Virus record (IMG/VR): IMGVR_UViG_3300047318_000315
Span: 1-36,688 of that record
Source: a virus
DNA length: 36,688 nucleotides
Direction: 5' to 3' (one strand)
Below the pieces are notes generated by a model. It searched no databases. It had not been told where the DNA came from and was given only the letters and a program-made list of their open reading frames with translations. The translations under genes and the position numbers were made by a program. Positions 6,650 through 35,642 of the stretch are shown one piece after another; the first letter of the stretch is position 1; each line of letters begins with the position of its first letter.

Positions 6650-6928
6650 ATGGGCGCCTTGACCGACGCGATCACCGATGAGCTTGACAAGCTGAGTGGA
6701 CACCATACCGCACCTGGCCTCGCAGAACTAGCCCTCAGCTTGGCTCGCGCGATCGACGAGACCGACGCTGCGACCTCCCGAGCCGTAGCCGGTCGTGAGC
6801 TACGGGCAGTGATGGCCGACCTGCGCAGGCTGTCCCCCGTCGAGTCGAAGGGGGACACGGTCGATGACATTGCTGAGCAGCGAAAGAAGCGCCGCGACGC
6901 AGCCCGAGCCCAGCAGCAGTCCGGCTGA
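6650..6928 (+). CDS. terS: Terminase small subunit
   Basis: A 92-residue helical protein. The sequence ALTDAITDEL...AELALSLARAIDE...GRELRAVMADLRRLS and the basic C-terminal tail EQRKKRRDAARAQQ match the short small-terminase proteins of actinophages. It recognises the packaging site and helps the large subunit. ATG 6650 is chosen because AAGGG lies 9 bases upstream; a GTG at 6644 is too close to that site. It is short for the family and overlaps the large subunit gene by 65 bases. It is the first gene of the late operon. Confidence 0.7.
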   Translation: MGALTDAITDELDKLSGHHTAPGLAELALSLARAIDETDAATSRAVAGRELRAVMADLRRLSPVESKGDTVDDIAEQRKKRRDAARAQQQSG

Positions 6929-8399
6929 CGGCCCGCTCCTCGGCCACCAGCGCCCCCGGATCCTCACCGTGCCGCCCACCGCGCTGTCGACGGCCGGGCA
7001 GGAAGCCATCGAGCTGGCGGCCCGAGCCGGGCTCCACCTCGATCCGTGGCAGCAGTTCGTCCTGAACCAGGGCATGGCCGAGGACGCGGACGGCGACTGG
7101 GCTGCGTTCGAGGTCGCCGTGAACGTCCCGCGCCAGAACGGCAAGGGCGGGATCATCGAGGCACGCGAGTTGTGGGGCCTGTTCATCGGAGGCGAGCAGC
7201 TCATCCTGCACAGTGCCCATGAGTTCAAGACGGCGAAGTCTGCGTTCCGCCGGATCGAGCGACTGATCCGGCAATGCCCTGACCTGCTGAAACGTGTGAA
7301 GACGTTCCGGCAGACGGTCGGTGAGGAAGCGGTCGAGCTGCATACCGGGCAGACGCTGCGGTTCATCGCCCGCTCGAAGGGGTCGGGGCGTGGCTTCACT
7401 GGCGACTGCAACATGTTGGACGAGGACATGATCCTCGGTGACGAGGCGATGGACGCGTTGCTGCCCACGATGGCCGCGGTTGCCAACCCGCAGATCTGGT
7501 ACCTGGGCAGTGCCGGGATCGGCGCCCCGTCCGTACAGCTGGGCCGCCTGCGCCGCCGTGCGCTCGCCGCACTTGAGGCCGGCGCCCCGGACAAGTCGCT
7601 CGCCTACTTCGAATGGTCGGCCGACCCGCACGTCGACGAGTGCCCGCCGGACTGCGACCAGCATGATGACGCGTCCGGCGACGAAGCGGTGCTCAAGGCG
7701 AATCCTGCGGTCGGGTTCCGGCTGACACTGGAGAAGGTGCGCAACGAGCGGTCGACGCTGAGCCCGGCCGGTTACGCCCGTGAGCGGCTCGGTGTAGGCG
7801 AGTACCCGTCGGATGTGGCGGACACGTGGCAGGTCATTGGGCAGGACGCCTGGCGGTCTCTGGCGGCCGCGGAGTCGGCCCCGTCGGATCCGGTCGCGTT
7901 CTCGATCGACGTGACGCCGGAGCGCTCACACGCGGCGATCGCCGTAGCAGGGACTTGGCGGGGCGGCACGCACGTCGAGATCGTCGAGCACCGGCCGGGC
8001 ACGGGCTGGGTGGTGGAGCGCGCCAAGGAGCTGCACAGGAAGTGGAAGCCGCACTGCTGGGTAGTGGACGGCGGCGGCCCGGCCGGGTCGCTGATCGCCG
8101 ACCTGGAGGACGAGGAGACCGGCCTGGGCGTGACGGTCGTGCAGCCCAAGGCGCGTGACATCGCCTCGGCTTGCGGCCAGTTCTACGACGCGGTGACCGA
8201 GCAGAACCTCAGCCACCTCGATCAGGCGCCACTCGCAACGGCTCTGGCCGGGGCGCAGAAGCGGCCGCTGGGGGACGCCTGGGCGTGGGCCCGGCGCGGT
8301 GTGGGCGTCGACATCAGTCCGTTGGTGGCGGTGACGCTGGCCAAGTGGGGGCTCGGCGCCGAGGTCGAGGAACCGGAGAGGGCGCCGAACCTGTGGTGA
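6864..8399 (+). CDS. terL: Terminase large subunit
   Basis: A 511-residue packaging motor. The ATPase domain has a Walker A-like VPRQNGKGG (residues 88-96), the adaptor region HSAHEFKTAKSAFRR, the conserved SKGSGRGFTGD and Walker B NMLDEDMIL (~183-191). The C-terminal nuclease domain begins near FSIDVTPERSHAAIA (~345-360) with the acidic motif WVVDGGGPAG (~395). A GGGGG site lies 11-15 bases before the ATG at 6864. It pumps DNA into the prohead and cuts the concatemer. The order TerS-TerL-portal-protease-capsid is the HK97-like plan. Confidence 0.93.
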   Translation: MTLLSSERSAATQPEPSSSPADGPLLGHQRPRILTVPPTALSTAGQEAIELAARAGLHLDPWQQFVLNQGMAEDADGDWAAFEVAVNVPRQNGKGGIIEARELWGLFIGGEQLILHSAHEFKTAKSAFRRIERLIRQCPDLLKRVKTFRQTVGEEAVELHTGQTLRFIARSKGSGRGFTGDCNMLDEDMILGDEAMDALLPTMAAVANPQIWYLGSAGIGAPSVQLGRLRRRALAALEAGAPDKSLAYFEWSADPHVDECPPDCDQHDDASGDEAVLKANPAVGFRLTLEKVRNERSTLSPAGYARERLGVGEYPSDVADTWQVIGQDAWRSLAAAESAPSDPVAFSIDVTPERSHAAIAVAGTWRGGTHVEIVEHRPGTGWVVERAKELHRKWKPHCWVVDGGGPAGSLIADLEDEETGLGVTVVQPKARDIASACGQFYDAVTEQNLSHLDQAPLATALAGAQKRPLGDAWAWARRGVGVDISPLVAVTLAKWGLGAEVEEPERAPNLW

Positions 8400-26974: not shown

Positions 26975-28585
26975 TCATCCATCAGCGTCTGCTGGCTGCG
27001 TCGCTGAGCCCGGCCCCTGCTGCGGTACGGCACCCTCAGCAGGGGCCGGTCCACGCCGTCGGCGGGCCCGCGGCACGGCGGCCGCCGCGCGCTCCGTCAG
27101 GTCCTGCTCATACTCCTGAAACAGCGCCATGTACGTGTCGGCGGTCAGCACGATCGTGGAGTGCCGCAGCTTCTTGCTGGCGTCGTCGATGTCGCCGCCG
27201 CCGGCCTTCACCAGTGCGGCCGCTCCGTGCCTCAGGTCGCGGAGGTTGATGGGCGGTAGGCCGGCCGTCTCCACGATCCGCCGGAACTCCTTGGACACCG
27301 TGTCGGGATGGAGCCAGGACCCGTCCACCGCTGCGAAGACCTTGCCGGTGACGGTCCAGGTCTTCCCTGCGGCCAGGCGCGCGTCGCGCTCTGCGTCCTG
27401 CCGGGCGCGGTGCTCGCGTAGTACGGCCACCGTCTCGCGGTCGAGCACCACCGCAGCCACGGAGGAATCCGTCTTCGGCTGTGTCTCGACCGGCGTCCAC
27501 CCGTCGACCACGATCTCTGTGAGCACGTCGATGCGCGGCGGCTCCGTGTCCAAGTGGACGTTCGCCCAGTCCGCGCCGACGCCCTCGCCGCGGCGCAGGC
27601 CGTGGTGGGCGACCAGGTGGTAGAAGGCGTACAGCCTGCTGTCCTCGGCTGCGTCGAGGAACGCGCCCAGCTGCTCGGGTGTCCAGACCATGACCGGGCT
27701 GGGAACTGCCCCTGTCTCGCGCCACCGGGCGACGCGCTCGGCTGTCCAGAGCTGGCCCTTGGGGCGTGCGCTGGAGCCCAGCTCGACATGCGCGGCCGCA
27801 TTGAAGGTGAGGAGCTGCTCGCCGATGGCCTTGTTCAGAGCCGCGCGCAGCGTGCGGCGGATCGCGTGCCGCGTCGCGGGGCCGGTCACCTTCCGATACG
27901 GCGTCATCGCGGCGAGCGTCTCGCGCTCAGCGGCGAGACGATCGCGCTCCTTGGCCGGCGGCCGCCCGGGGCTCAGCCACTTCGCCTTGGCTTCCTGCTC
28001 GCGGCGGGCCTCGTTCTCCGCGCGGATGACGTCGGCCTGGTCGGCGATGGCGTCGAACATGGCTTGGACATGGCCAACGTTCAACCTGTCGAGACGGTAG
28101 TGCCCGATGTGCGGCTTCAAGTGAATCTTGATATGCGAGCGGTAACCCGCGTTCGTCGTGGCGCGTGTTTTCTTCGCGGCCATCCACCGGTCGAGCCACT
28201 CGGCCACGGTGGTCTGGCCGTTCAGTGGAACGCCCACGCCCAGACGTCTCTGCACTTCGGCGGCCTGGGGAATGTCTGCGCGGCGCCGGGCGATGTCGGC
28301 GAGCAGATCGCCCACACGCTGCTGTTCAACGGGATCGTCACCCGGCAAGTCCAGGATGGCCTGCAGGCGGGAGAGGTCGCCCTGAGCCTCCGTCACGGAC
28401 TTGTACCCGGTGCGTCTGAAGGTCCGACGCTTGCCGTCGGCGTCCGGCGGCACCTCCTGGCGGAGACCGACGGAACCGTGGTTCTTCTTCTTGAGCTGCG
28501 GGCAGTCGTTGCCCAGTAGCTTGCCGTCCGCACCACGGCACTCGCAGCGTCGGTAGATGCTGCCTGCCCGGCGTGCTGACGGCAT
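26975..28585 (-). CDS. int: Tyrosine integrase
   Basis: A 536-residue recombinase. The N-terminus has a Cys-rich stretch (RRCECRGADGKLLGNDC) and an AP2-like arm-binding part; residues ~115-270 form the core-binding domain (TVAEWLDRWMAAKKTRATTN). The catalytic domain has Arg I in HHGLRRGEGVG, Lys in KTDSSVA, box II INLRDLRHGAAAL, LRHSTIVLTADTY with the His and nucleophile Tyr. In box II the usual first His of HxxR is an Arg (RDLR). GAAAGGAG lies upstream of the ATG. It integrates the phage at attB, a tRNA-Lys gene. The low-complexity C-terminal tail overlaps a 13-bp hairpin (27010-27049). Confidence 0.93.
   Translation of the reverse strand: MPSARRAGSIYRRCECRGADGKLLGNDCPQLKKKNHGSVGLRQEVPPDADGKRRTFRRTGYKSVTEAQGDLSRLQAILDLPGDDPVEQQRVGDLLADIARRRADIPQAAEVQRRLGVGVPLNGQTTVAEWLDRWMAAKKTRATTNAGYRSHIKIHLKPHIGHYRLDRLNVGHVQAMFDAIADQADVIRAENEARREQEAKAKWLSPGRPPAKERDRLAAERETLAAMTPYRKVTGPATRHAIRRTLRAALNKAIGEQLLTFNAAAHVELGSSARPKGQLWTAERVARWRETGAVPSPVMVWTPEQLGAFLDAAEDSRLYAFYHLVAHHGLRRGEGVGADWANVHLDTEPPRIDVLTEIVVDGWTPVETQPKTDSSVAAVVLDRETVAVLREHRARQDAERDARLAAGKTWTVTGKVFAAVDGSWLHPDTVSKEFRRIVETAGLPPINLRDLRHGAAALVKAGGGDIDDASKKLRHSTIVLTADTYMALFQEYEQDLTERAAAAVPRARRRRGPAPAEGAVPQQGPGSATQPADADG
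27010..27049. repeat. 13-bp inverted repeat in the integrase 3' end
   Basis: CCGGCCCCTGCTG (27010-27022) and CAGCAGGGGCCGG (27037-27049) pair perfectly around 14 bases. It lies inside the region encoding the dispensable-looking C-terminal tail, and could stabilise the mRNA or attenuate transcription. Confidence 0.5.
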
Positions 28586-28590
28586 GGGGT

Positions 28591-28830
28591 CTACTCCTTT
28601 CGTTCGGGAGGCGTGTCCGTACGCTCCACGTCCAAGTGCGCAAGCCCTACGCCCAGTACGAAGTCTGCCGCCGCATTGAGCTGGTCGAGCATCTCTTGCG
28701 TTATCCCCGCATCCCGGCGTACTGCGAACGCCAGCCCGTACTCGTTCTTGACGGGGACGACAAGTTCCCCCTCAGGAAGGTCGTCGCTGAAGGCGTACCA
28801 AAATCTTTGAAGGTGACACGGTGACTCCAT
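28591..28830 (-). CDS. Small acidic protein upstream of integrase
   Basis: A 79-residue protein. I start at the ATG at 28830, with GGGGGAGGA 4-12 bases upstream. WYAFSDDLPEGELVVPVKN, AVRRDAGITQEMLDQLNAAA and DFVLGVGLAHLD are a pattern seen in small Streptomyces proteins, often next to integrase genes. It has no catalytic motif. It lies 5 bases before the integrase and is probably co-transcribed, so a role in integration control is possible but unproven. Confidence 0.6.
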   Translation of the reverse strand: MESPCHLQRFWYAFSDDLPEGELVVPVKNEYGLAFAVRRDAGITQEMLDQLNAAADFVLGVGLAHLDVERTDTPPERKE

Positions 28831-28952
28831 GCAGTCCTCCCCCATCTCCCGCTCGCACGTTCGAGTTACAGCTTGGACCAGTACCCTTCCCCAACGGTGT
28901 GGCGCTCATGATCGCACCGTGCACCCCACCGGTCTACAGCTGGCAGCGGCGC

Positions 28953-28967
28953 ATTACCGAGAGTAAT
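28953..28967. promoter_or_regulatory. ATTAC-CGAGA-GTAAT dyad
   Basis: A perfect 5-bp dyad with the same centre as the one at 6608-6622 (on the reverse strand it reads ATTAC-TCTCG-GTAAT). It lies in the 156-base gap between the repressor gene and the integrase pair. On the reverse strand a weak promoter for the integrase pair may exist in the same gap (TTGGGG about 28902, TGTAAC about 28878). Confidence 0.5.
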
Positions 28968-28986
28968 CCTTAGGGGAATGCCTGGC

Positions 28987-29400
28987 TCAGCGCTCGGTGT
29001 CAGGCGGCACCAGGGTGTCGATCAGGCGCAGCAGACGGTCTCGCTGATCCGTCGGCAGCTGGTCGAGCTTGTGCACGTAGGCCTTGGCCTCGGTCGACCC
29101 GCTGATGAGCGGATCCACCCCGAAGAATTGACTGCCGGCCGCGTCCTGGAGTGTCTCCACAGGTAGCTGGCAGGCAGCCGCGAGCGCGCACAACTCCTCA
29201 TAGACCGGCGGCGTGACCGGCTGCCCGGTTTCCAGGCGGTAGATCCATCCCCGCTTCACCTGGACTCCTGACACAGGGTCGACGGCCTTCATGGCGAAGG
29301 TGTCGAGGCCCTCATTCAGCTCAGTGCGGCGCCTGCGAATCAAGTCCGCGAACTGCCTGCGCCGTTCAGGGTCCTGTGTGGGCATGCCAGTGGAAGCCAT
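28987..29400 (-). CDS. Probable immunity repressor, XRE HTH
   Basis: A 137-residue protein from ATG 29400 (an ATG at 29409 has no room for a ribosome binding site; GGCAGGA lies 7-13 bases before 29400). RRQFADLIRRRRTELNEG, the helix around TFAMKAV, and VKRGWIYRLETGQPVTPPVYEEL form an XRE fold; the C-terminus LDQLPTDQRDRLLRLIDTLV is a helical dimerisation-like part. It is divergent from the early operon (29678 on) across a region with several CCGTTCAG sites, the plan of a lysogeny switch. There is no protease/cleavage domain, so induction must differ from lambda. Confidence 0.72.
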   Translation of the reverse strand: MASTGMPTQDPERRRQFADLIRRRRTELNEGLDTFAMKAVDPVSGVQVKRGWIYRLETGQPVTPPVYEELCALAAACQLPVETLQDAAGSQFFGVDPLISGSTEAKAYVHKLDQLPTDQRDRLLRLIDTLVPPDTER

Positions 29401-29658
29401 AGGGATCATCCTGCCACTCCGTGGTCAAAGGTAACGGCGGGCCGTTCAGGGCCTGCCCGGCCTATCAAGGCATACGAGCAGGTCAGTCACTTCACTCATT
29501 GCGCGTACTGAACGGATTGTTCAGCACTTCGAGCGATCACGCCAGGTCGCTCTCCGTCATTGACCTGTTACCACCCATGCCGCTCGCCTTCATCTTGCTG
29601 GACAAACCGTTCAGACCGTGGAATGCTCGGCGCAATCGCCATTCAGCGCGATGAACGG
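29362..29658. promoter_or_regulatory. Switch region with CCGTTCAG operators
   Basis: CCGTTCAG at 29362-29369 (inside the repressor gene), 29442-29449 and 29607-29614; its complement at 29508-29515, where it forms the dyad CTGAAC-GGATT-GTTCAG (29508-29524); and a degenerate dyad CCATTCA/TGAACGG at 29639-29658. The 29607 copy lies in the spacer of the early promoter. CAGGTC/GACCTG (29543-29548, 29562-29567) is a further dyad. Confidence 0.6.
29599..29627 (+). promoter_or_regulatory. Early rightward promoter
   Basis: TGGACA (29599-29604) and AATGCT (29622-29627) with a 17-base spacer that holds a CCGTTCAG site. It would drive the replication operon and be shut off by the repressor. Confidence 0.45.
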
Positions 29659-29677
29659 TATGTCCCGTGAGGTGAAC

Positions 29678-29971
29678 GTGAGCGATTCTCCACCCCTGAT
29701 GTACGCGGTCCACAGCCCGAACCGCCTCAAGACGCTCATGGAGCGCACCGGCACCGGTGAGTCCATCACCAGCCGCGAATTGGCCGCCGCCGCAGGCGTG
29801 GCGACCGGCACCATCGGCGCCCTCATGTCCGGCACCCAGCGACTGGTCCCTGAGGAGAAGGCCAAGGCCGTCGCCGCCGCGCTCGGCGTCGACCTGCTCG
29901 TGCTCTTCATACCCATGGAGCGCGCCGGCCGCGTGTTCGTCGCCACCCAGCCGCAGAGGGAGGCCATGTGA
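29678..29971 (+). CDS. XRE-family HTH protein, first early gene
   Basis: A 97-residue protein from GTG 29678, with GAGG 5 bases upstream; ATGs at 29651 and 29660 have no such site. RLKTLMERTGTGESITSREL, AAAGVATGTIGALMSGTQRL and EEKAKAVAAALGVDLLVLF form an XRE-type HTH. It is the first gene downstream of the early promoter, and so likely a Cro-like control protein. It overlaps the next gene by GTGA. Confidence 0.72.
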   Translation: MSDSPPLMYAVHSPNRLKTLMERTGTGESITSRELAAAAGVATGTIGALMSGTQRLVPEEKAKAVAAALGVDLLVLFIPMERAGRVFVATQPQREAM

Positions 29972-30285
29972 CCGCCCCCATGGAGCCGCTGACCCCCGAG
30001 CAGGTCCTGGCCCTGCCCGCGATGCCGCCCGTCAAGTCCGCTTTCGCTGCCCTCAACATCTCCGAGGGCACCGGCTACGGCCTCATTCGGCAGGGCCAGT
30101 TCCCCATACCCGTCCTCGAGTTCGGCCGCGCCAAGCGCGTGCGCAGGACGGACCTGCTCGCCTTCCTCGGCCTCTCCCCGCTCGCTGCTGCCGAGGTCCA
30201 GTCGGCAGCAGCGGCCACCACCTACGACGCCCCCGGGGTCCAGCCGGGGGCGTCTGCCGAGCAGCCCGCGCCCACCAGCACGTAA
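29968..30285 (+). CDS. HTH protein, excisionase-like
   Basis: A 105-residue protein from a GTG overlapping the previous stop. The domain VKSAFAALNISEGTGYGLIR, QGQFPIPVLEFGRAKRVRRT and DLLAFLGL has the fold of excisionase-type (HTH_17/AlpA-like) proteins. The C-terminal ~35 residues are low-complexity. It is a second excisionase candidate besides 4756-4965, and lies closer to the integrase. A function in excision or in early regulation cannot be told from the sequence. Confidence 0.65.
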   Translation: MTAPMEPLTPEQVLALPAMPPVKSAFAALNISEGTGYGLIRQGQFPIPVLEFGRAKRVRRTDLLAFLGLSPLAAAEVQSAAAATTYDAPGVQPGASAEQPAPTST

Positions 30286-30780: not shown

Positions 30781-30983
30781 CCGCGGCCCCGGGCCGCACC
30801 TCGGCGCAGCGCGTCGATGCCCTGCTGGTCATCGACATGGAGAAAACCAGCGCTCACTACGAGTGCTACCGCCCGGGGTGTCCGAAGCCCCGCGAAGAGC
30901 CGATCAAGCCCTCCGCCACCAGGGCGTTCATCGACGGGATCACGACCCGCCACCTGGCCCAGCACCACGGGGAGACGCGTTGA
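30777..30983 (+). CDS. Small hypothetical early protein
   Basis: A 68-residue protein, its ATG overlapping the previous stop and its stop overlapping the TTG of the replication gene. HYECYRPGCPKPREEP has two cysteines, and FIDGITTRHLAQHHGE has several His, perhaps a small zinc-binding module. Tight coupling to the replication gene suggests a helper role. Confidence 0.6.
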   Translation: MTAAPGRTSAQRVDALLVIDMEKTSAHYECYRPGCPKPREEPIKPSATRAFIDGITTRHLAQHHGETR

Positions 30984-33637
30984 CCGACTCACAGACTCCA
31001 GACCTCCGGGCGGCTGCTCGCGAGCTGCACGACGCTGGCCTGTGCGTCCTGCCCATCAAGGCCGACGGCACCAAGAAGCCGGCCGTGTCCTGGCTTCCGT
31101 ACAAGGTCGCCCGCAGCACTCCCGAAGAACACGACCAGTGGTTCACCGGCGACCGCCCGCGCGGCATCGCCGTGGTCTACGGCGGCGTCTCTGGACACGT
31201 CGAGATGCTGGAGTTCGAGGGCCTCGCCGTCCGCGACGGCGTCCTCGACGAGGTCACCGAGATCATGGAGGGATCCGGCCTCGGCGACGTATGGCAGAGC
31301 ATCACCACGGGATGGGCGAGCCAGTCGCCTTCCGGTGGCGTGCACTACCGGATCCGTGTCGAGGACGGCGTCGCCGGTAATAAGAAGTTGGCCCGCCGCC
31401 TCGCGCGTGAGGAGGAGTACAGCGCGGAAGAGCGGCAGCGCGTCGCGGAAAAGCCCAACTCGAAGATCGTGCGAGTCCTCATTGAGACCCGCGGCGAGGG
31501 CGGCTACGGGCTGGTCGAGCCGTCCGGCGGTCCGGTCCACGCCTCCGGACGCCCGTACATCCGTCTCGCCGGCGACCCGAACAGCATCCCGACCCTCGAC
31601 GCGGACACGCTCGACGCGGTGCACGCCATCTGCCAGATGGTCGACGCGATGCCTCGCGAGGAGAAGGCGAAGACAGCGCCGCGCCCGAAGCGAGAGCTTC
31701 CCGCCGGCACTGTCCGGCCCGGTGACGACTTCGAGGCCCGTACCGACTGGCCACAGATCATCGGTGACGAGTTCGACCCGGTCTTCACTCGCGGCACCAC
31801 CACGTACTGGCGGCGCAAGGGGAAGAACCAGGGGATCTCGGCAACGACTGGCCACGCTGCGGACCGGGACCGGCTGTATGTTTTTACCACCTCGACCACG
31901 TTCGAGTCGGAGACGCCCTACGACAAGTTCGCGGCGTACACCCACCTGACGCAGGGCGGCACCAGCACCGAGCACTTCAAGCGTGCCGCAGCCGAGCTGC
32001 GCGGGCGCGGATTCGGCACCGACACCCGCCCACTCAACCTCGTCTCCCAGCAGCCGCGGCACTTCAGCGACGGCTCGTCTGCGCTCGACGCCGAGCACGC
32101 ACCCGACGAGGTCGCAGGAGACGGGCCCGGTCTGCGCCTCGTCACCAGCACCCCCGAACTGGACATCACCAACGAGGCTGACGCGCTCGACGGCGTCCTC
32201 GGCCTGATGGAGCAGGGCCGTCTCCCCGACCTCTACGCCCGCTCCGGTGGGCCCACCTGGGTCCACAAGGACGACGAGGGCAACCCGACCATGCAGCAGC
32301 TCGGCACCGACAACCTGCGGGCCTACCTCGCCGAGCACGTAGCCACCTACACCGTCCGCTCCGACCCCCTCACCGAGGGGATGAAGCACGAGCGAGAGCT
32401 GCTCATGCCGAAGACGTGCAGCACGATCCTCGGCCGGCGCACGTGGCCGCTCCCTCGGCTGCGCGGCATCGTCACCTCGCCCGTGGTCCGGCCCGACGGG
32501 ACGCTGCTCCGCGAGCCCGGCTACGACCGGCCGACCGGTCTCTACCTTGAGCCTCGCGTGCCGCTGCGCCGTCTCCAGCCCGACGTCACCAGCGAGAGCC
32601 TGGAGCGCGCGAAGTCGATCGTCCTCGGCGACATGCTCGCCGACTTCCCCTGGCAGGAGCCGTCCGACAGGGCGCACTTCCTGGGGGCCCTGCTCACTCC
32701 GATCCTGCGGCCGCACTTCTACGGGCCGACGCCTATGTGGATCCTCACGGCGACCGCTCCGGGCTCGGGCAAGTCCCTGCTGAAAGACATCCTCAAGGCG
32801 GCATACGGCATCTCCGAGACCGCCTGGCCCGAGAACGACACCGAGTTGCGGAAGAGCATCACGACGCAGCTCTACACGACCGGGCAACCGGTCGTCGTCC
32901 TCGACAACCTGCCCAACGGGTTCGTGCTGAAGAGCCCGGTCCTGTCCTCGCTGCTCACCGCAGAGCACTGGGGTGACCGCGTACTCGGCTCCACCTCGTC
33001 CGTGACCATGCCCAACGATCGCGTCTGGATCGTCACCGGCAACGCCCTACGCACCGGGGGCGACAACGGACGCCGCGTCATGTGGGTACGCCTGGACCCC
33101 AACTGCCCCGATCCGGACCAGCGCGACGGCTTCCGCGTGGGGGACCTCCGCCCCTGGCTGCGGGCCAACGCATCCACGGTCGTGGCTGCCCTCGTCACCA
33201 TGGTCCGGGCCTGGCTCGCCGCCGGGGCACCGACCGAGCGCATCCGGAAGGGCGACTACTCGGAATGGGCCTCCATGGTGGCCGGGCTGCTGGCCTACCT
33301 CGGCGTCGACGGATGGATGGCCGACCGCGACAAGGCCATCGACCAGGACGACGAACAGTTGGAGTGGTCGGCGTTCCTTGAGTCCTGGCGGGAGAAGCTC
33401 GGCGACCAGGCGCAGACGACCAGCGCGGTGCTCGGCTCCGTCGCAGACCACGTACCGCGCCACCCGAAGACCGGCGAGATGCCGACTCCGAACGTCCTGG
33501 GCGGCTGGCTCAAGAGCCGTGCCGGCCGGTACTTCGGCACGCACAAGGTGGTCAAGGTCTGGGATGCGCACCGCCGCGCGAACGTCTGGCGCGTCGAGGT
33601 GCACGAGCAGCGCGGCACAGGACGGCACGAGTCATGA
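30980..33637 (+). CDS. Prim-Pol/ATPase replication protein
   Basis: An 885-residue protein. The N-terminal ~200 residues are a bifunctional primase-polymerase domain: AGLCVLPIKADGTKKPAVSW, GHVEMLEFEG (acidic motif) and SPSGGVHYRIRVEDGV (motif with His). The C-terminal half is an SF3-like/AAA helicase: Walker A TAPGSGKSLL at ~592-600, Walker B VVVLDNL at ~638 and a sensor region (DRVWIVTGNALRTGGDNGRR). I start at TTG 30980 with GGGGAGA upstream; the ATG at 30863 lies inside the previous gene. Prim-Pol replicases are used by actinomycete integrative elements (RepPP) and phages. It would prime and unwind at the origin that follows. Confidence 0.85.
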   Translation: MTDSQTPDLRAAARELHDAGLCVLPIKADGTKKPAVSWLPYKVARSTPEEHDQWFTGDRPRGIAVVYGGVSGHVEMLEFEGLAVRDGVLDEVTEIMEGSGLGDVWQSITTGWASQSPSGGVHYRIRVEDGVAGNKKLARRLAREEEYSAEERQRVAEKPNSKIVRVLIETRGEGGYGLVEPSGGPVHASGRPYIRLAGDPNSIPTLDADTLDAVHAICQMVDAMPREEKAKTAPRPKRELPAGTVRPGDDFEARTDWPQIIGDEFDPVFTRGTTTYWRRKGKNQGISATTGHAADRDRLYVFTTSTTFESETPYDKFAAYTHLTQGGTSTEHFKRAAAELRGRGFGTDTRPLNLVSQQPRHFSDGSSALDAEHAPDEVAGDGPGLRLVTSTPELDITNEADALDGVLGLMEQGRLPDLYARSGGPTWVHKDDEGNPTMQQLGTDNLRAYLAEHVATYTVRSDPLTEGMKHERELLMPKTCSTILGRRTWPLPRLRGIVTSPVVRPDGTLLREPGYDRPTGLYLEPRVPLRRLQPDVTSESLERAKSIVLGDMLADFPWQEPSDRAHFLGALLTPILRPHFYGPTPMWILTATAPGSGKSLLKDILKAAYGISETAWPENDTELRKSITTQLYTTGQPVVVLDNLPNGFVLKSPVLSSLLTAEHWGDRVLGSTSSVTMPNDRVWIVTGNALRTGGDNGRRVMWVRLDPNCPDPDQRDGFRVGDLRPWLRANASTVVAALVTMVRAWLAAGAPTERIRKGDYSEWASMVAGLLAYLGVDGWMADRDKAIDQDDEQLEWSAFLESWREKLGDQAQTTSAVLGSVADHVPRHPKTGEMPTPNVLGGWLKSRAGRYFGTHKVVKVWDAHRRANVWRVEVHEQRGTGRHES

Positions 33638-33654
33638 CGGCCGTCGATCGTGAC

Positions 33655-33974
33655 GCAGGGAGTGCAGGGACCTGGCAGGGACCTGTGCAGGGACTTCCGC
33701 GCCTCCCTGCACAGGGCCTGATCTGCGCTGACGCAGGGAGGCGGGGAGTCGCGGGGAGTTTCCGCCGCCCCCCTTACTGCACGCGCGTCCCACATGCATC
33801 GCACACCACATCTGCGGTGTGGATCTCACGACGATTCCGCCGGACCTCTCACCACGTAAGCCCATAGCTAACTCCCTGCAACTCCCTGCCTCCCTGCAAA
33901 ACCGCAGATCACCGGCACACCTACCTGACGCGGGACTCCCCGCACGACTCCCGCCAAGTCCCTGCACTCCCTGC
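33655..33974. other. Probable replication origin: GCAGGGA iterons
   Basis: Eleven exact copies. Forward GCAGGGA at 33655, 33664, 33675, 33687, 33733; reverse (TCCCTGC) at 33704, 33873, 33883, 33891, 33959, 33968. Variants GCGGGGA at 33741 and 33751, and TCCCCGC at 33937. The forward set on the left faces the reverse set on the right, around a less GC-rich centre at about 33775-33870. The 367-base region carries no gene and lies between the Prim-Pol and helicase genes. Confidence 0.78.
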
Positions 33975-34004
33975 AAAAGCCCAGCAACCGAACCGAGGTG
34001 AACC

Positions 34005-35642
34005 ATGAACGCCACCGCCATCGCCACACCCGCGACCTACACCCCTCGCCCCTACCAGCTCGACGCCATCGAGGCCCTGCGCAAGGGATGGGCCGACGGC
34101 CAGAGCCGGTTGGCCGTCGTACTGCCCACCGGCGCCGGCAAGACCGTCGTGTTCTCCCACCTGGCGCACCAGATGCTCGACAGCCTCGGCGGCCGCCGCG
34201 TCCTGGTGATCGCCCACCGCGAGGAGCTGATCGAGCAGGCCGCTTCCAAGCTCTTGGCGGTCGACCCGATGCTGCGGGTCGGCATCGTCAAGGCGCAGCG
34301 CGACGACCACCAGGACGCCGACGTGATCGTGGCCAGCGTCCAGACCCTGGCCGTCGCCCGGCGCCGCGAGGCCATCCGCGACGTCGGCCTGATCATCGTG
34401 GACGAGTGCCACCACGCCGCGGCCCGCTCCTACATGGAGGTCCTCAAGCACTTCGGCGCCTGGGACGGCGTACCGACGGCGGGCTTCACCGCGACGATGA
34501 CGCGAACGGACGGTGGCCTGGCCGAGGTCTGGCAGGACGTCGTGTTCCGCCTCGACATCCTCGACATGATCGAGGACGGCTACCTGTGCGACGTCCGCGG
34601 CAAGAGCATCACCGTCGACACTCTCGACCTCAACAAGGTGAAGACCCGCGGCGGCGACCTGGTCGACGGCCAACTCGGCAAGGCCCTGGAGGACTCCGGC
34701 GCGCTGGACGCCGTCGCCAAGGCGTACCTCGAACATGCCGCCGACCGGCCCGGCGTCGTTTTCACGCCGACCGTGGCGACCGCGCAGGCCGCCGCCGAGT
34801 CGCTGCGCGCGGTCGGCATCACGGCCGCGCCGGTGTGGGGCGACATGGGCCGCGACGAACGCCGCGCCACCCTCGCCCGGTACACGGCGGGTGACGTGCA
34901 GGTCCTCACCAACTGCATGGTGCTCACCGAGGGGTTCGACGCTCCGCACACCAGCTGCATCGTGGTCGCTCGCCCGACCAAGAGCCCTGGTCTGTACGTG
35001 CAGATGGTCGGCCGTGGGCTCCGGCCGGCGCCCGGGAAGCGGGACGCGCTGCTGCTCGACGTGATGGGCGCGGCGTCCCGGCACAAGCTGGCGTCGATGG
35101 TCGACCTGACGGAGCGGGAGATCGGCGAGGCGAAGGCAGGCAAGAGCCTGCGGCAGGTCGCCGAGGAGCACGCGGCCACCGAGAAGCGCCGGGTGCTCGC
35201 CGCGCAGGTGACGACCGAGGAGATCAACCTGTTCGGCAGCAGCGCGATCCGCTGGCTGCGCACCGAGAACGGTGTGTGGTTCATCCGGCTGACATCCGCC
35301 ATGTTCCTGTTCCTGCAGCGCGACCCCGGGACCCGGCTGTACCGGATGCGCCGCTGGACGGAGGCGGACGGCGTGCACCCGCCGAAGGACGACGTGGCCC
35401 GGCCTCTGCCGGAGGCGCTGGCGTGGCTGGAGCAGCAGGCCAAGGTGCTGGCGCCCGGAGCGTTCGTCTCGCGTCAGGCCCGCTGGAGGTTCGGGACGCC
35501 GAGCCCGAAGCAGCTGGGGCTCTGCCGCCGTCTGGGGCTCGCCGTGCCGCGCGGTGCGTCCGCCGGCGACGTCGCCGACCTGATCGACCAGGACCGCGTC
35601 GGCCGTGTCCTCGGCCAACTGATCCTTCCCGCTGCTGCATGA
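34005..35642 (+). CDS. SF2 DEAD/DEAH-box helicase
   Basis: A 545-residue helicase. Motif I PTGAGKT (41-47), Ia IAHREELIEQA, motif II DECH (about 132), III TAT, then the second RecA domain with VVFTPTVATAQAAAESL, MVLTEGFDAPHTSC and motif VI QMVGRGLRP. The C-terminal ~150 residues are a separate domain (VWFIRLTSAMFLFLQ). An AGGTG site is near the ATG. It lies just beside the iteron origin and probably unwinds DNA during phage replication; UvrB/Res-type enzymes are the nearest relatives. Confidence 0.9.
   Translation: MNATAIATPATYTPRPYQLDAIEALRKGWADGQSRLAVVLPTGAGKTVVFSHLAHQMLDSLGGRRVLVIAHREELIEQAASKLLAVDPMLRVGIVKAQRDDHQDADVIVASVQTLAVARRREAIRDVGLIIVDECHHAAARSYMEVLKHFGAWDGVPTAGFTATMTRTDGGLAEVWQDVVFRLDILDMIEDGYLCDVRGKSITVDTLDLNKVKTRGGDLVDGQLGKALEDSGALDAVAKAYLEHAADRPGVVFTPTVATAQAAAESLRAVGITAAPVWGDMGRDERRATLARYTAGDVQVLTNCMVLTEGFDAPHTSCIVVARPTKSPGLYVQMVGRGLRPAPGKRDALLLDVMGAASRHKLASMVDLTEREIGEAKAGKSLRQVAEEHAATEKRRVLAAQVTTEEINLFGSSAIRWLRTENGVWFIRLTSAMFLFLQRDPGTRLYRMRRWTEADGVHPPKDDVARPLPEALAWLEQQAKVLAPGAFVSRQARWRFGTPSPKQLGLCRRLGLAVPRGASAGDVADLIDQDRVGRVLGQLILPAAA

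What the first reader, a model, noticed from the sequence alone, without database searches (positions are those of the whole stretch)
33637..34004. Candidate replication origin with eleven opposed GCAGGGA iterons
Eleven exact heptamers plus three near copies in 320 gene-free bases, five of the left ones forward and all of the right ones reverse, around a less GC-rich centre. The site lies between a Prim-Pol/helicase gene and an SF2 helicase gene. I know of no described origin with this heptamer. The opposed layout suggests loading of two replisomes, or a looped complex.
Basis: partly seen in the sequence, partly recalled or inferred. Interest (0 to 1): 0.75.

Follow-up and report, generated by a model that had tools for sequence, protein, structure and literature searches.

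The report
Mirror-image phage replication origin
A Streptomyces-type virus carries, just behind the gene for its DNA-copying starter protein, a 320-base mirror-image cluster of short repeats that is very probably where it begins copying its DNA, and comparison with relatives suggests which end of that protein reads the repeats.

Summary
In detail: 11 exact GCAGGGA plus 3 GCGGGGA lie in 33655-33974; elsewhere the heptamer is at background. It is more ordered than reported: two pairs of inverted arms share one centre (~33815). The gene before it encodes a Prim-Pol fused to an SF3-type helicase (fold matches: pox D5/E5, NrS-1, SaPI5) with a probable C-terminal winged helix. All 42 distinct full-length cases (window included) keep the array and its dyad directly after the gene, but the heptamer differs by lineage (mainly GCAGGG in 11, GCGGGG in 31). 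Both arms switch together (r=0.97). The class follows the C-terminal part of the initiator best, the Prim-Pol domain and the neighbouring SF2 helicase less; residue 866 is K in 31/31 G-class and R/C in 11/11 A-class. Best reading: an initiator-specific iteron origin loading helicases from both sides. It works like the pri-rep-ori of SaPI/PICI satellites, but in a complete temperate phage and with a purine-pyrimidine-alternating rather than AT-rich centre. Several other primase-helicase lineages have repeat arrays of other heptamers at the same place. No replication or binding assay could be run. New variant of a known kind; interest moderate.

The parts
30980..33637 (+). Initiator gene: Prim-Pol + SF3-type helicase + probable C-terminal winged helix (TTG start inferred, 885 aa)
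   Evidence: PF09250 E 4.7e-08; phrog_19930 'DNA polymerase/primase' E 3.9e-300; start inferred from relatives
32153..33634 (+). Middle and helicase half, residues 392-885 (Walker A APGSGKS, Walker B VVVLDN, TGN, RR; motif names recalled)
   Evidence: AF2 model pLDDT 83.4; VIA-align Z 14.7 to MPXV E5, 13.4 to NrS-1 C-terminal region, 13.4 to SaPI5 primase-helicase
33317..33634 (+). C-terminal domain, proposed iteron reader (modelled helix residues 837-846, strands 855-862 and 867-874)
   Evidence: model secondary structure; iteron class follows this part best; residue 866 is K in 31/31 G-class and 0/11 A-class
33655..33693 (+). Left outer iterons, four forward GCAGGGA (33655, 33664, 33675, 33687)
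33704..33710 (-). Single reverse iteron inside the left arm; part of a short inverted repeat 33679-33693/33704-33718
33719..33727 (+). Second element TGATCTGCG, left copy
   Evidence: octamers TGA[CTG]C[TA]GC in 31 of 42 cases
33733..33757 (+). Left inner iterons: GCAGGGA 33733, GCGGGGA 33741 and 33751
33758..33872 (.). Centre of the dyad; 33774-33823 is among the most purine-pyrimidine-alternating 50-nt stretches of the window
   Evidence: 0.76 alternating, three windows higher of 36,638; 1 of 200 base shuffles as high
33873..33897 (-). Right inner iterons, three reverse GCAGGGA
33903..33911 (-). Second element TGATCTGCG, right copy (CGCAGATCA on +)
33937..33974 (-). Right outer iterons: GCGGGGA 33937, GCAGGGA 33959 and 33968, reverse
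34005..35642 (+). SF2 helicase gene (ResIII/DEAD + Helicase_C); follows the array in 39 of 42 cases, not needed for it
   Evidence: no SF2 match in the held DNA of L036 (5.0 kb downstream) and L055 (1.5 kb) although the array is there; L004's contig ends too soon to tell

Best explanation
Region 33655-33974 is the phage's replication origin, an iteron-type origin read by the Prim-Pol/SF3-helicase protein whose gene ends 17 nt before it. Proposed steps: the C-terminal winged helix of the initiator binds the T-G-C-R-G-G-G-A iterons; each arm (3 inner and 3-5 outer copies around a TGATCTGCG element) gathers about one hexamer, the two arms facing each other; ATP-driven helicase action opens the centre, an alternating purine-pyrimidine tract of lower GC than its flanks; the N-terminal Prim-Pol primes both strands and two forks leave the dyad. 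SHOWN by sequence or model: array, dyad, conservation, co-switching of both arms, co-variation with the C-terminal part of the initiator, SF3 fold of the model. INFERRED: binding, winged-helix identity, hexamer per arm, opening in the centre, bidirectional start, priming.
For: Array directly 3' of the initiator gene in 42 of 42 distinct full-length cases, window included: 5-16 GCRGGGW sites in the 370 nt after the gene against a mean of 0.35 and at most 4 per 370 nt elsewhere in the loci. Dyad score above all of 30 shuffles in 42 of 42; an earlier test with other region limits gave 18 of 19, L013 failing. Right arm reverse (one extra forward copy in L009); left arm mostly forward in 40 of 42, ties in L003 and L004 (arms were split at the largest gap). 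Left and right arms change heptamer together, r=0.969 over 42. Iteron class needs 2 changes on the tree of residues 785-880, 4 on 395-780, 7 on 20-380 and 6 on SF2 (39 cases). Nearest non-close neighbour has the same class for 10/11 A and 28/28 G at residues 785-880, 0/11 A at residues 20-200, 5.5/11 A and 25/28 G at SF2 residues 1-96, about as near the array. Residue 866: K in 31/31 G-class, R or C in 11/11 A-class; 839: Q or M in 31/31 G-class, V, A or K in 10/11 A-class, Q in L032. L079, outside the set, has GCGGGTAC iterons with Q and K there. Helicase half matches SF3 initiators by fold. Repeat arrays of other heptamers after other primase-helicase genes.
Against: No functional data. No clear GC-skew switch. 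The end of the gene is the part nearest the array, so linkage alone would make it track the iterons; tracking rises gradually along the gene, and helicase slices also track (10/11, 9/11 and 8/11 A at residues 530-795; slice 700-795 also needs only 2 changes). SF2 is not random either (0 of 500 shuffles as low as its 6 changes). The class changes only 4 times on the whole-protein tree, 2 forced, so residue-base correlations carry little independent weight; some associated columns lie outside the C-terminal domain (661, 560, 606). L026 is a mixed case (9 A, 6 G sites). The centre is not AT-rich. No sequence-profile hit to a solved structure. L036, L043 and L044 lack the alternating centre.
Confidence: 0.82

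Rival explanations
1. Operator cluster: the heptamers bind a phage regulator that controls transcription of the SF2 gene and what follows; no origin.
For: The array ends 30 nt before the SF2 start codon; weak HTH matches lie at 28987-29409 (-) and 29968-30285 (+), a better one at 29618-29971 (+).
Against: A 320-nt dyad with 14 sites is large for an operator (general knowledge); the array stays where no SF2 gene was found (L036, L055); in mycobacteriophages with arrays the next genes are RusA or hypothetical genes; no GCAGGGA between 27371 and 32773, where the regulator genes lie.
Confidence: 0.08
2. The SF2 helicase, not the Prim-Pol/SF3 protein, reads the iterons.
For: Its gene follows the array in 39 of 42 cases, and its tree is not random with respect to the class (0 of 500 shuffles as low as 6 changes).
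Against: 6 changes against 2 for the C-terminal part of the initiator; L001, L015 and L016 have SF2 87-89% identical to the window's but GCGGGGA, while L007 with 75% has GCAGGGA; array without SF2 in L036 and L055.
Confidence: 0.04
3. Origin, but the heptamers are single-strand priming sites for the Prim-Pol domain (as NrS-1 and ORF904 recognise short template motifs) rather than double-strand binding sites.
For: Template motifs GTG, TTTGGTTA and CCTG are reported for related enzymes (PMC8718748 passages); TCCCTGC contains CCTG.
Against: The G-class complement TCCCCGC lacks CCTG; the class does not follow the Prim-Pol domain (0/11 A neighbours at residues 20-200).
Confidence: 0.07
4. Partition, packaging or recombination site.
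For: Opposed repeat arrays occur at such sites in general (recalled).
Against: Terminase large subunit at 6864-8399 and integrase at 26975-28585 are far from the array; no partition protein among the ORFs scanned, but not every ORF was scanned.
Confidence: 0.03

Closest known systems
pri-rep-ori of SaPIs/PICIs (PMC7581432 and PMC6092414, passages read)
   Same: Initiator helicase, sometimes fused to a primase; it recognises, with its C-terminal domain, short iterons of an origin directly downstream of its gene; two iteron sets flank a central region; [quoted passage not shown] The PICI gene order integrase, repressor / xis, pri-rep, ori resembles the order here.
   Different: Here in a full temperate siphophage with terminase, portal, head, tape-measure and endolysin genes; other heptamer; centre alternating purine-pyrimidine and about 60% GC. 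[quoted passage not shown]
pRN1 ORF904 and its downstream stem-loop (PMC4234260, passages read)
   Same: AEP primase + SF3 helicase + winged helix, essential element directly 3' of the gene, two-fork model proposed; the authors extend it to phage BIP-1.
   Different: There a ~100-nt stem-loop, and iterons are not the proposed origin; here opposed iterons in a 320-nt dyad.
NrS-1 phage polymerase (PMC8718748 passages; structures)
   Same: Prim-Pol + SF3-type C-terminal region; model aligns over 8-482, Z 13.4, 354 residues, rmsd 8.1.
   Different: The motif reported there is a primase template site.
Phage P4 alpha protein with ori and crr (recalled; mentioned in passages)
   Same: Primase-helicase initiator with a C-terminal origin-binding domain and iterons (recalled).
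   Different: P4 needs two distant sites (recalled); no second cluster in this window.
Streptococcus thermophilus phage Sfi21 noncoding origin, PER (PMC6356513 passages)
   Same: Noncoding origin in the replication module; extra copies hinder an infecting phage.
   Different: Its repeat layout was not read here.

Membership tests
PICI/SaPI-type rep-ori | Origin immediately 3' of the initiator gene | tested here: met
   17 nt between the Prim-Pol stop and the first iteron; array within 370 nt after the gene in 42 of 42 cases
PICI/SaPI-type rep-ori | Two sets of iterons flanking a centre | tested here: met
PICI/SaPI-type rep-ori | AT-rich region between the sets | tested here: inconclusive
   centre mean 58.8% GC vs region 64.8%; the least stable 50-nt stretch of the locus lies in the region in only 8 of 42
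PICI/SaPI-type rep-ori | C-terminal domain of the helicase binds the iterons | tested here: inconclusive
   co-variation only, partly explicable by linkage
PICI/SaPI-type rep-ori | rep-ori drives autonomous plasmid replication | not testable with these tools
   needs a bench test
PICI satellite (the element as a whole) | Lacks a set of virion genes and depends on a helper phage | tested here: not met
   terminase, portal, head protease, major head, minor tail, tape-measure and endolysin matches
SF3 primase-helicase initiators | SF3-type helicase fold | tested here: met
   model pLDDT 83.4; pox D5/E5, NrS-1, SaPI5, ASFV PrimPol and papilloma E1 among the matches; the profile search by sequence found none
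SF3 primase-helicase initiators | C-terminal winged helix | tested here: inconclusive
   helices then two strands in the model and fold alignments to NrS-1 and D5 that reach model residues 482-485; the domain was not folded or searched alone
pRN1-type stem-loop origin | Conserved ~100-nt stem-loop 3' of the gene | not tested
   a long interrupted dyad exists, but no single-strand folding or pairing count was run
P4 two-site origin (ori + crr) | Second distant iteron site | tested here: not met
   the seven GCAGGGA outside the array are single copies at least 800 nt apart

The most novel reading that the evidence does not exclude
Actinobacterial phages use an exchangeable initiator-origin cassette in which the last ~100 residues of the primase-helicase and the adjoining mirror-image iterons co-evolve under a readable code (residue 866 K for GCGGGG, R/C for GCAGGG; residue 853 acidic where the base after the heptamer is T), while duplex opening relies on a purine-pyrimidine-alternating centre instead of an AT-rich element. 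The organisation thought private to PICI satellites would then be a general phage replicon type.
Probability: 0.35. Interest if true: 0.68.

Novelty: new variant of a known kind. Interest (0 to 1): 0.52.

Why it matters
To my knowledge (recalled) few origins of temperate actinophages are mapped, and origins in 70% GC genomes lack an obvious melting element. Here the origin, its likely reader and candidate specificity residues can be named from sequence, with natural variants for swap tests. It also questions the published statement that the two-iteron-set organisation is private to PICIs (PMC6092414, passage), and could give Streptomyces genetics compact phage-derived replicons with several specificities.

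Tried and rejected
GC skew as origin evidence: no clear switch at 33.7-34 kb. BLASTN of 33500-34100 against phages: 32 records matched; the 20 listed match only the start of the SF2 gene or its edge (33992-34098), none the array; 12 were not listed. Prim-Pol against phage records: 92 matched, none over 80% of the query. Profile searches of solved structures with A1, A2 and A3: nothing convincing; Pfam on the second half: no family in more than 4 of 38 members. The first AF2 model of the whole protein was poor (pLDDT 48.5) and was not used for fold search. Rfam: no family at its cutoff, only weak miRNA matches that reflect the dyad. Stability of the centre: low but rarely the minimum. A Z-DNA energy table recalled from memory put its minimum mostly in the left iteron arm rather than the centre, so I make no Z-DNA claim; the alternation itself is the observation. 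TGACCTGC as a priming site (CCTG): dropped, because the window and several relatives have TGATC forms and the orientation is reversed in the CAGTGCC lineages.

Results against a general rule: among 14 distant loci, six show no array (L070, L076, L077, L080, which is a fragment, L081, L082); of the eight with one, L078 and L079 show no dyad above shuffles, and strand patterns are clean two-block only in L072 and L079. Of 17 phage records, eight exceed all 200 shuffles; AcaML1 (3/200), PSA (9/200), RootBeer (14/200), Shambre1 (19/200) and Kenzers (25/200) are borderline; Eileen, Heather, Janeemi and Dubu show none. Only Ruthiejr, Reptar3000 and R24.1 of the eight have two clean opposed blocks. 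In MarkPhew and Ruthiejr another stretch of the locus holds a 7-mer 7 times, so their support is weaker.

Rows dropped: of the loci (the last: 21 of 392 genomes matched), those with a partial Prim-Pol match and those whose first 300 nt of the region repeat another locus were left out to give 42, window included; near-identical ones remain (36 effective at 92% identity). Tests by domain used 39 of 42, those with an SF2 gene.

That no paper describes this heptamer origin rests only on paper searches of an open-access library, seen as listings; nine papers were opened, passages only, one of which (PMC4155818) gave reference entries only.

Full report
OBSERVATION. GCAGGGA occurs 18 times in the window, 11 of them in 33655-33974, with three GCGGGGA near copies. 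It is the densest 7-mer cluster in the window; in 20 third-order Markov copies the best of any 7-mer was 6-8. The arrangement is a nested dyad: arms 33719-33760/33870-33911 (42 nt, 83%) and 33655-33679/33950-33974 (25 nt, 92%) share the centre 33815. Each arm holds an outer group of iterons, a TGATCTGCG element, and an inner group of three.

CONTEXT. G000 is a virus record of 36,688 bases, completeness not given. Terminase, portal, head protease, major head, minor tail, tape-measure and endolysin genes are present, and an integrase, so this reads as a temperate siphophage rather than a satellite. On the right, the integrase and a weak HTH match run leftward; then rightward come two genes with HTH matches (29618, 29968), an unknown gene, the Prim-Pol/helicase gene, the array and an SF2 helicase gene.

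RELATIVES. Scans with the Prim-Pol protein and its alignment gave Streptomyces prophages and viral contigs and matches in 21 of 392 genomes of the genus of G001. After dropping partial and repeated loci 42 distinct full-length cases, window included, remain. In 42 of 42 the 370 nt after the gene hold more GCRGGGW sites (5-16) than any other 370-nt stretch of the locus (at most 4, mean 0.35), and the self-dyad score exceeds all of 30 shuffles; an earlier run with other limits had L013 fail, 18 of 19. Eleven cases are mainly GCAGGG, 31 mainly GCGGGG; L026 is mixed, 9 to 6. The two arms carry the same version, r=0.969. The consensus is T-G-C-R-G-G-G-A/T; where the initiator has an acidic residue at 853 the base after the heptamer is T in 80% of sites, against 17% and 6% in the other groups (numbering).

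WHICH PROTEIN READS IT. The iteron class needs 7 changes on a tree of Prim-Pol residues 20-380, 4 on 395-780, 2 on 785-880 and 6 on SF2 (39 cases; shuffled mean 9.8-9.9). In 96-residue slices the nearest non-close neighbour shares the class for 10 of 11 A and 28 of 28 G cases at residues 785-880, for 0 of 11 A at residues 20-200, and for 5.5 of 11 A and 25 of 28 G at SF2 residues 1-96. Helicase slices between 530 and 795 also track (8-10 of 11 A, 26-26.5 of 28 G), and slice 700-795 also needs only 2 changes. The SF2 start is about as close to the array as the end of the Prim-Pol gene, so linkage alone does not explain the asymmetry, but the gradual rise along the gene shows that linkage plays a part. 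The columns most associated with the class are 866, 822, 661, 831, 560, 839, 787, 788, 606, 438, 848, 842 and 861 in that order, leaving out one column without a window residue. Residue 866, between the two modelled C-terminal strands, is K in 31 of 31 G cases and R or C in 11 of 11 A cases. Residue 839, in the helix before them, is Q or M in 31 of 31 G cases; among A cases V in 8, A in 1, K in 1, Q in 1 (L032). The class changes 4 times on the whole-protein tree, 2 forced, so this is suggestive, not decisive. L079, outside the set, has GCGGGTAC iterons with Q and K at these places.

STRUCTURE. A model of residues 392-885 from 38 sequences has mean pLDDT 83.4. The leading fold matches are SF3 initiators: MPXV E5 (Z 14.7, rmsd 5.3, 315 aligned, model 6-405), NrS-1 C-terminal region (Z 13.4, rmsd 8.1, 354 aligned, model 8-482), SaPI5 primase-helicase (Z 13.4, rmsd 8.2, 369 aligned, model 5-476). 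Phage relatives by predicted fold are phiAsp2 Pas55 and a Caulobacter phage protein. That the last domain is a winged helix rests on secondary structure and on the long alignments; it was not folded alone.

THE CENTRE. In 37 of 42 cases no 50-nt stretch of the locus alternates purine and pyrimidine more than one inside the array region; exceptions are the window (three windows higher of 36,638), L007, L036, L043 and L044. In 28 of 42 none of 200 base shuffles reached the observed value. The centre is lower in GC than the region (0.588 vs 0.648 on average), but the least stable stretch of the locus lies in the region in only 8 of 42. That this tract is where the strands part is inference.

WIDER PATTERN. 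Of 14 distant loci, eight have a 7-mer array right after the primase gene above all 200 shuffles: CAGTGCC (L072, L074, L075), CAGTGAC/GCAGTGA (L071, L073), GCGTACC (L078), CGGGTAC (L079, a C-terminal relative) and AGTGACA in Arthrobacter phage Peas (L069); six have none; dyads exceed shuffles in six of the eight, and strand patterns are often mixed. In 17 phage records (Peas again included) eight exceed all 200 shuffles: Peas, six mycobacteriophages and Lacticaseibacillus phage R24.1; five are borderline and four show none; clean opposed blocks only in Ruthiejr, Reptar3000 and R24.1. The passages I saw of the paper on cluster K mycobacteriophages mention the primase/helicase and 13-bp start-associated repeats but no origin there. 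The octamer TGA[CTG]C[TA]GC is found in 31 of 42 cases and in seven of the eight distant arrays, not in Peas, and TGAYCTGC in none of the 17 records; its reader is unknown.

COMPARISON. Passages of PMC7581432 state that SaPI Rep helicases use the C-terminal domain to recognise iterons of an origin directly downstream of the gene, apparently as two hexamers. Passages of PMC6092414 show two iteron sets flanking an AT-rich region 3' of the initiator gene, plasmid replication by such a segment, and the statement that no other known bacterial replicon shares it. The present region works like that. The element is not a PICI, since it has its own virion genes, and its centre differs. Passages of PMC4234260 describe a stem-loop origin 3' of the Prim-Pol/SF3/winged-helix gene of pRN1. 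I therefore rate it a new variant of a known kind.

VERDICT. Origin of replication, 0.82. C-terminal domain of the initiator as reader, about 0.75. Bidirectional double-hexamer loading, about 0.5. Alternating centre as opening site, about 0.35.

Noticed in passing
L069:7475-7816 (Arthrobacter phage Peas MH834623): The annotated hypothetical gene 61 lies over eight AGTGACA copies (L069:7562-7777) directly after the primase/polymerase gene; the CDS may be spurious or overlap an origin.
   Followed up: partly
L086-L091 (mycobacteriophages Anaya, MarkPhew, Ruthiejr, CrimD, SgtBeansprout, Reptar3000), just 3' of the primase/helicase gene: 7-mer arrays (AACAGAT, AGCACAG, AGGGACA, CTGTGCC) in gaps of 222-434 nt; clean opposed blocks in Ruthiejr and Reptar3000, mixed strands in the others: candidate origins.
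   Followed up: partly
L097 (Lacticaseibacillus phage R24.1), 420 nt after 3844: Seven CCGTCAC copies in two opposed groups with a strong dyad (score 40, best of 15 shuffles 15).
   Followed up: no
window 33719-33727 and 33903-33911; L071-L079: A second inverted element, TGATCTGCG here and TGACCTGC-like in relatives, recurs in Streptomyces-group arrays whatever the iteron; its reader is unknown.
   Followed up: partly
window about 2188-2560: AGGACGC occurs 10 times within 368 nt, the second densest 7-mer cluster of the window, in a stretch with long ORFs.
   Followed up: no
   Followed up: no
window 26975-30285: Integrase and a weak HTH match leftward, then two HTH-match genes and the primase-helicase rightward: much like the gene order described for PICIs, in a complete phage.
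   Followed up: no
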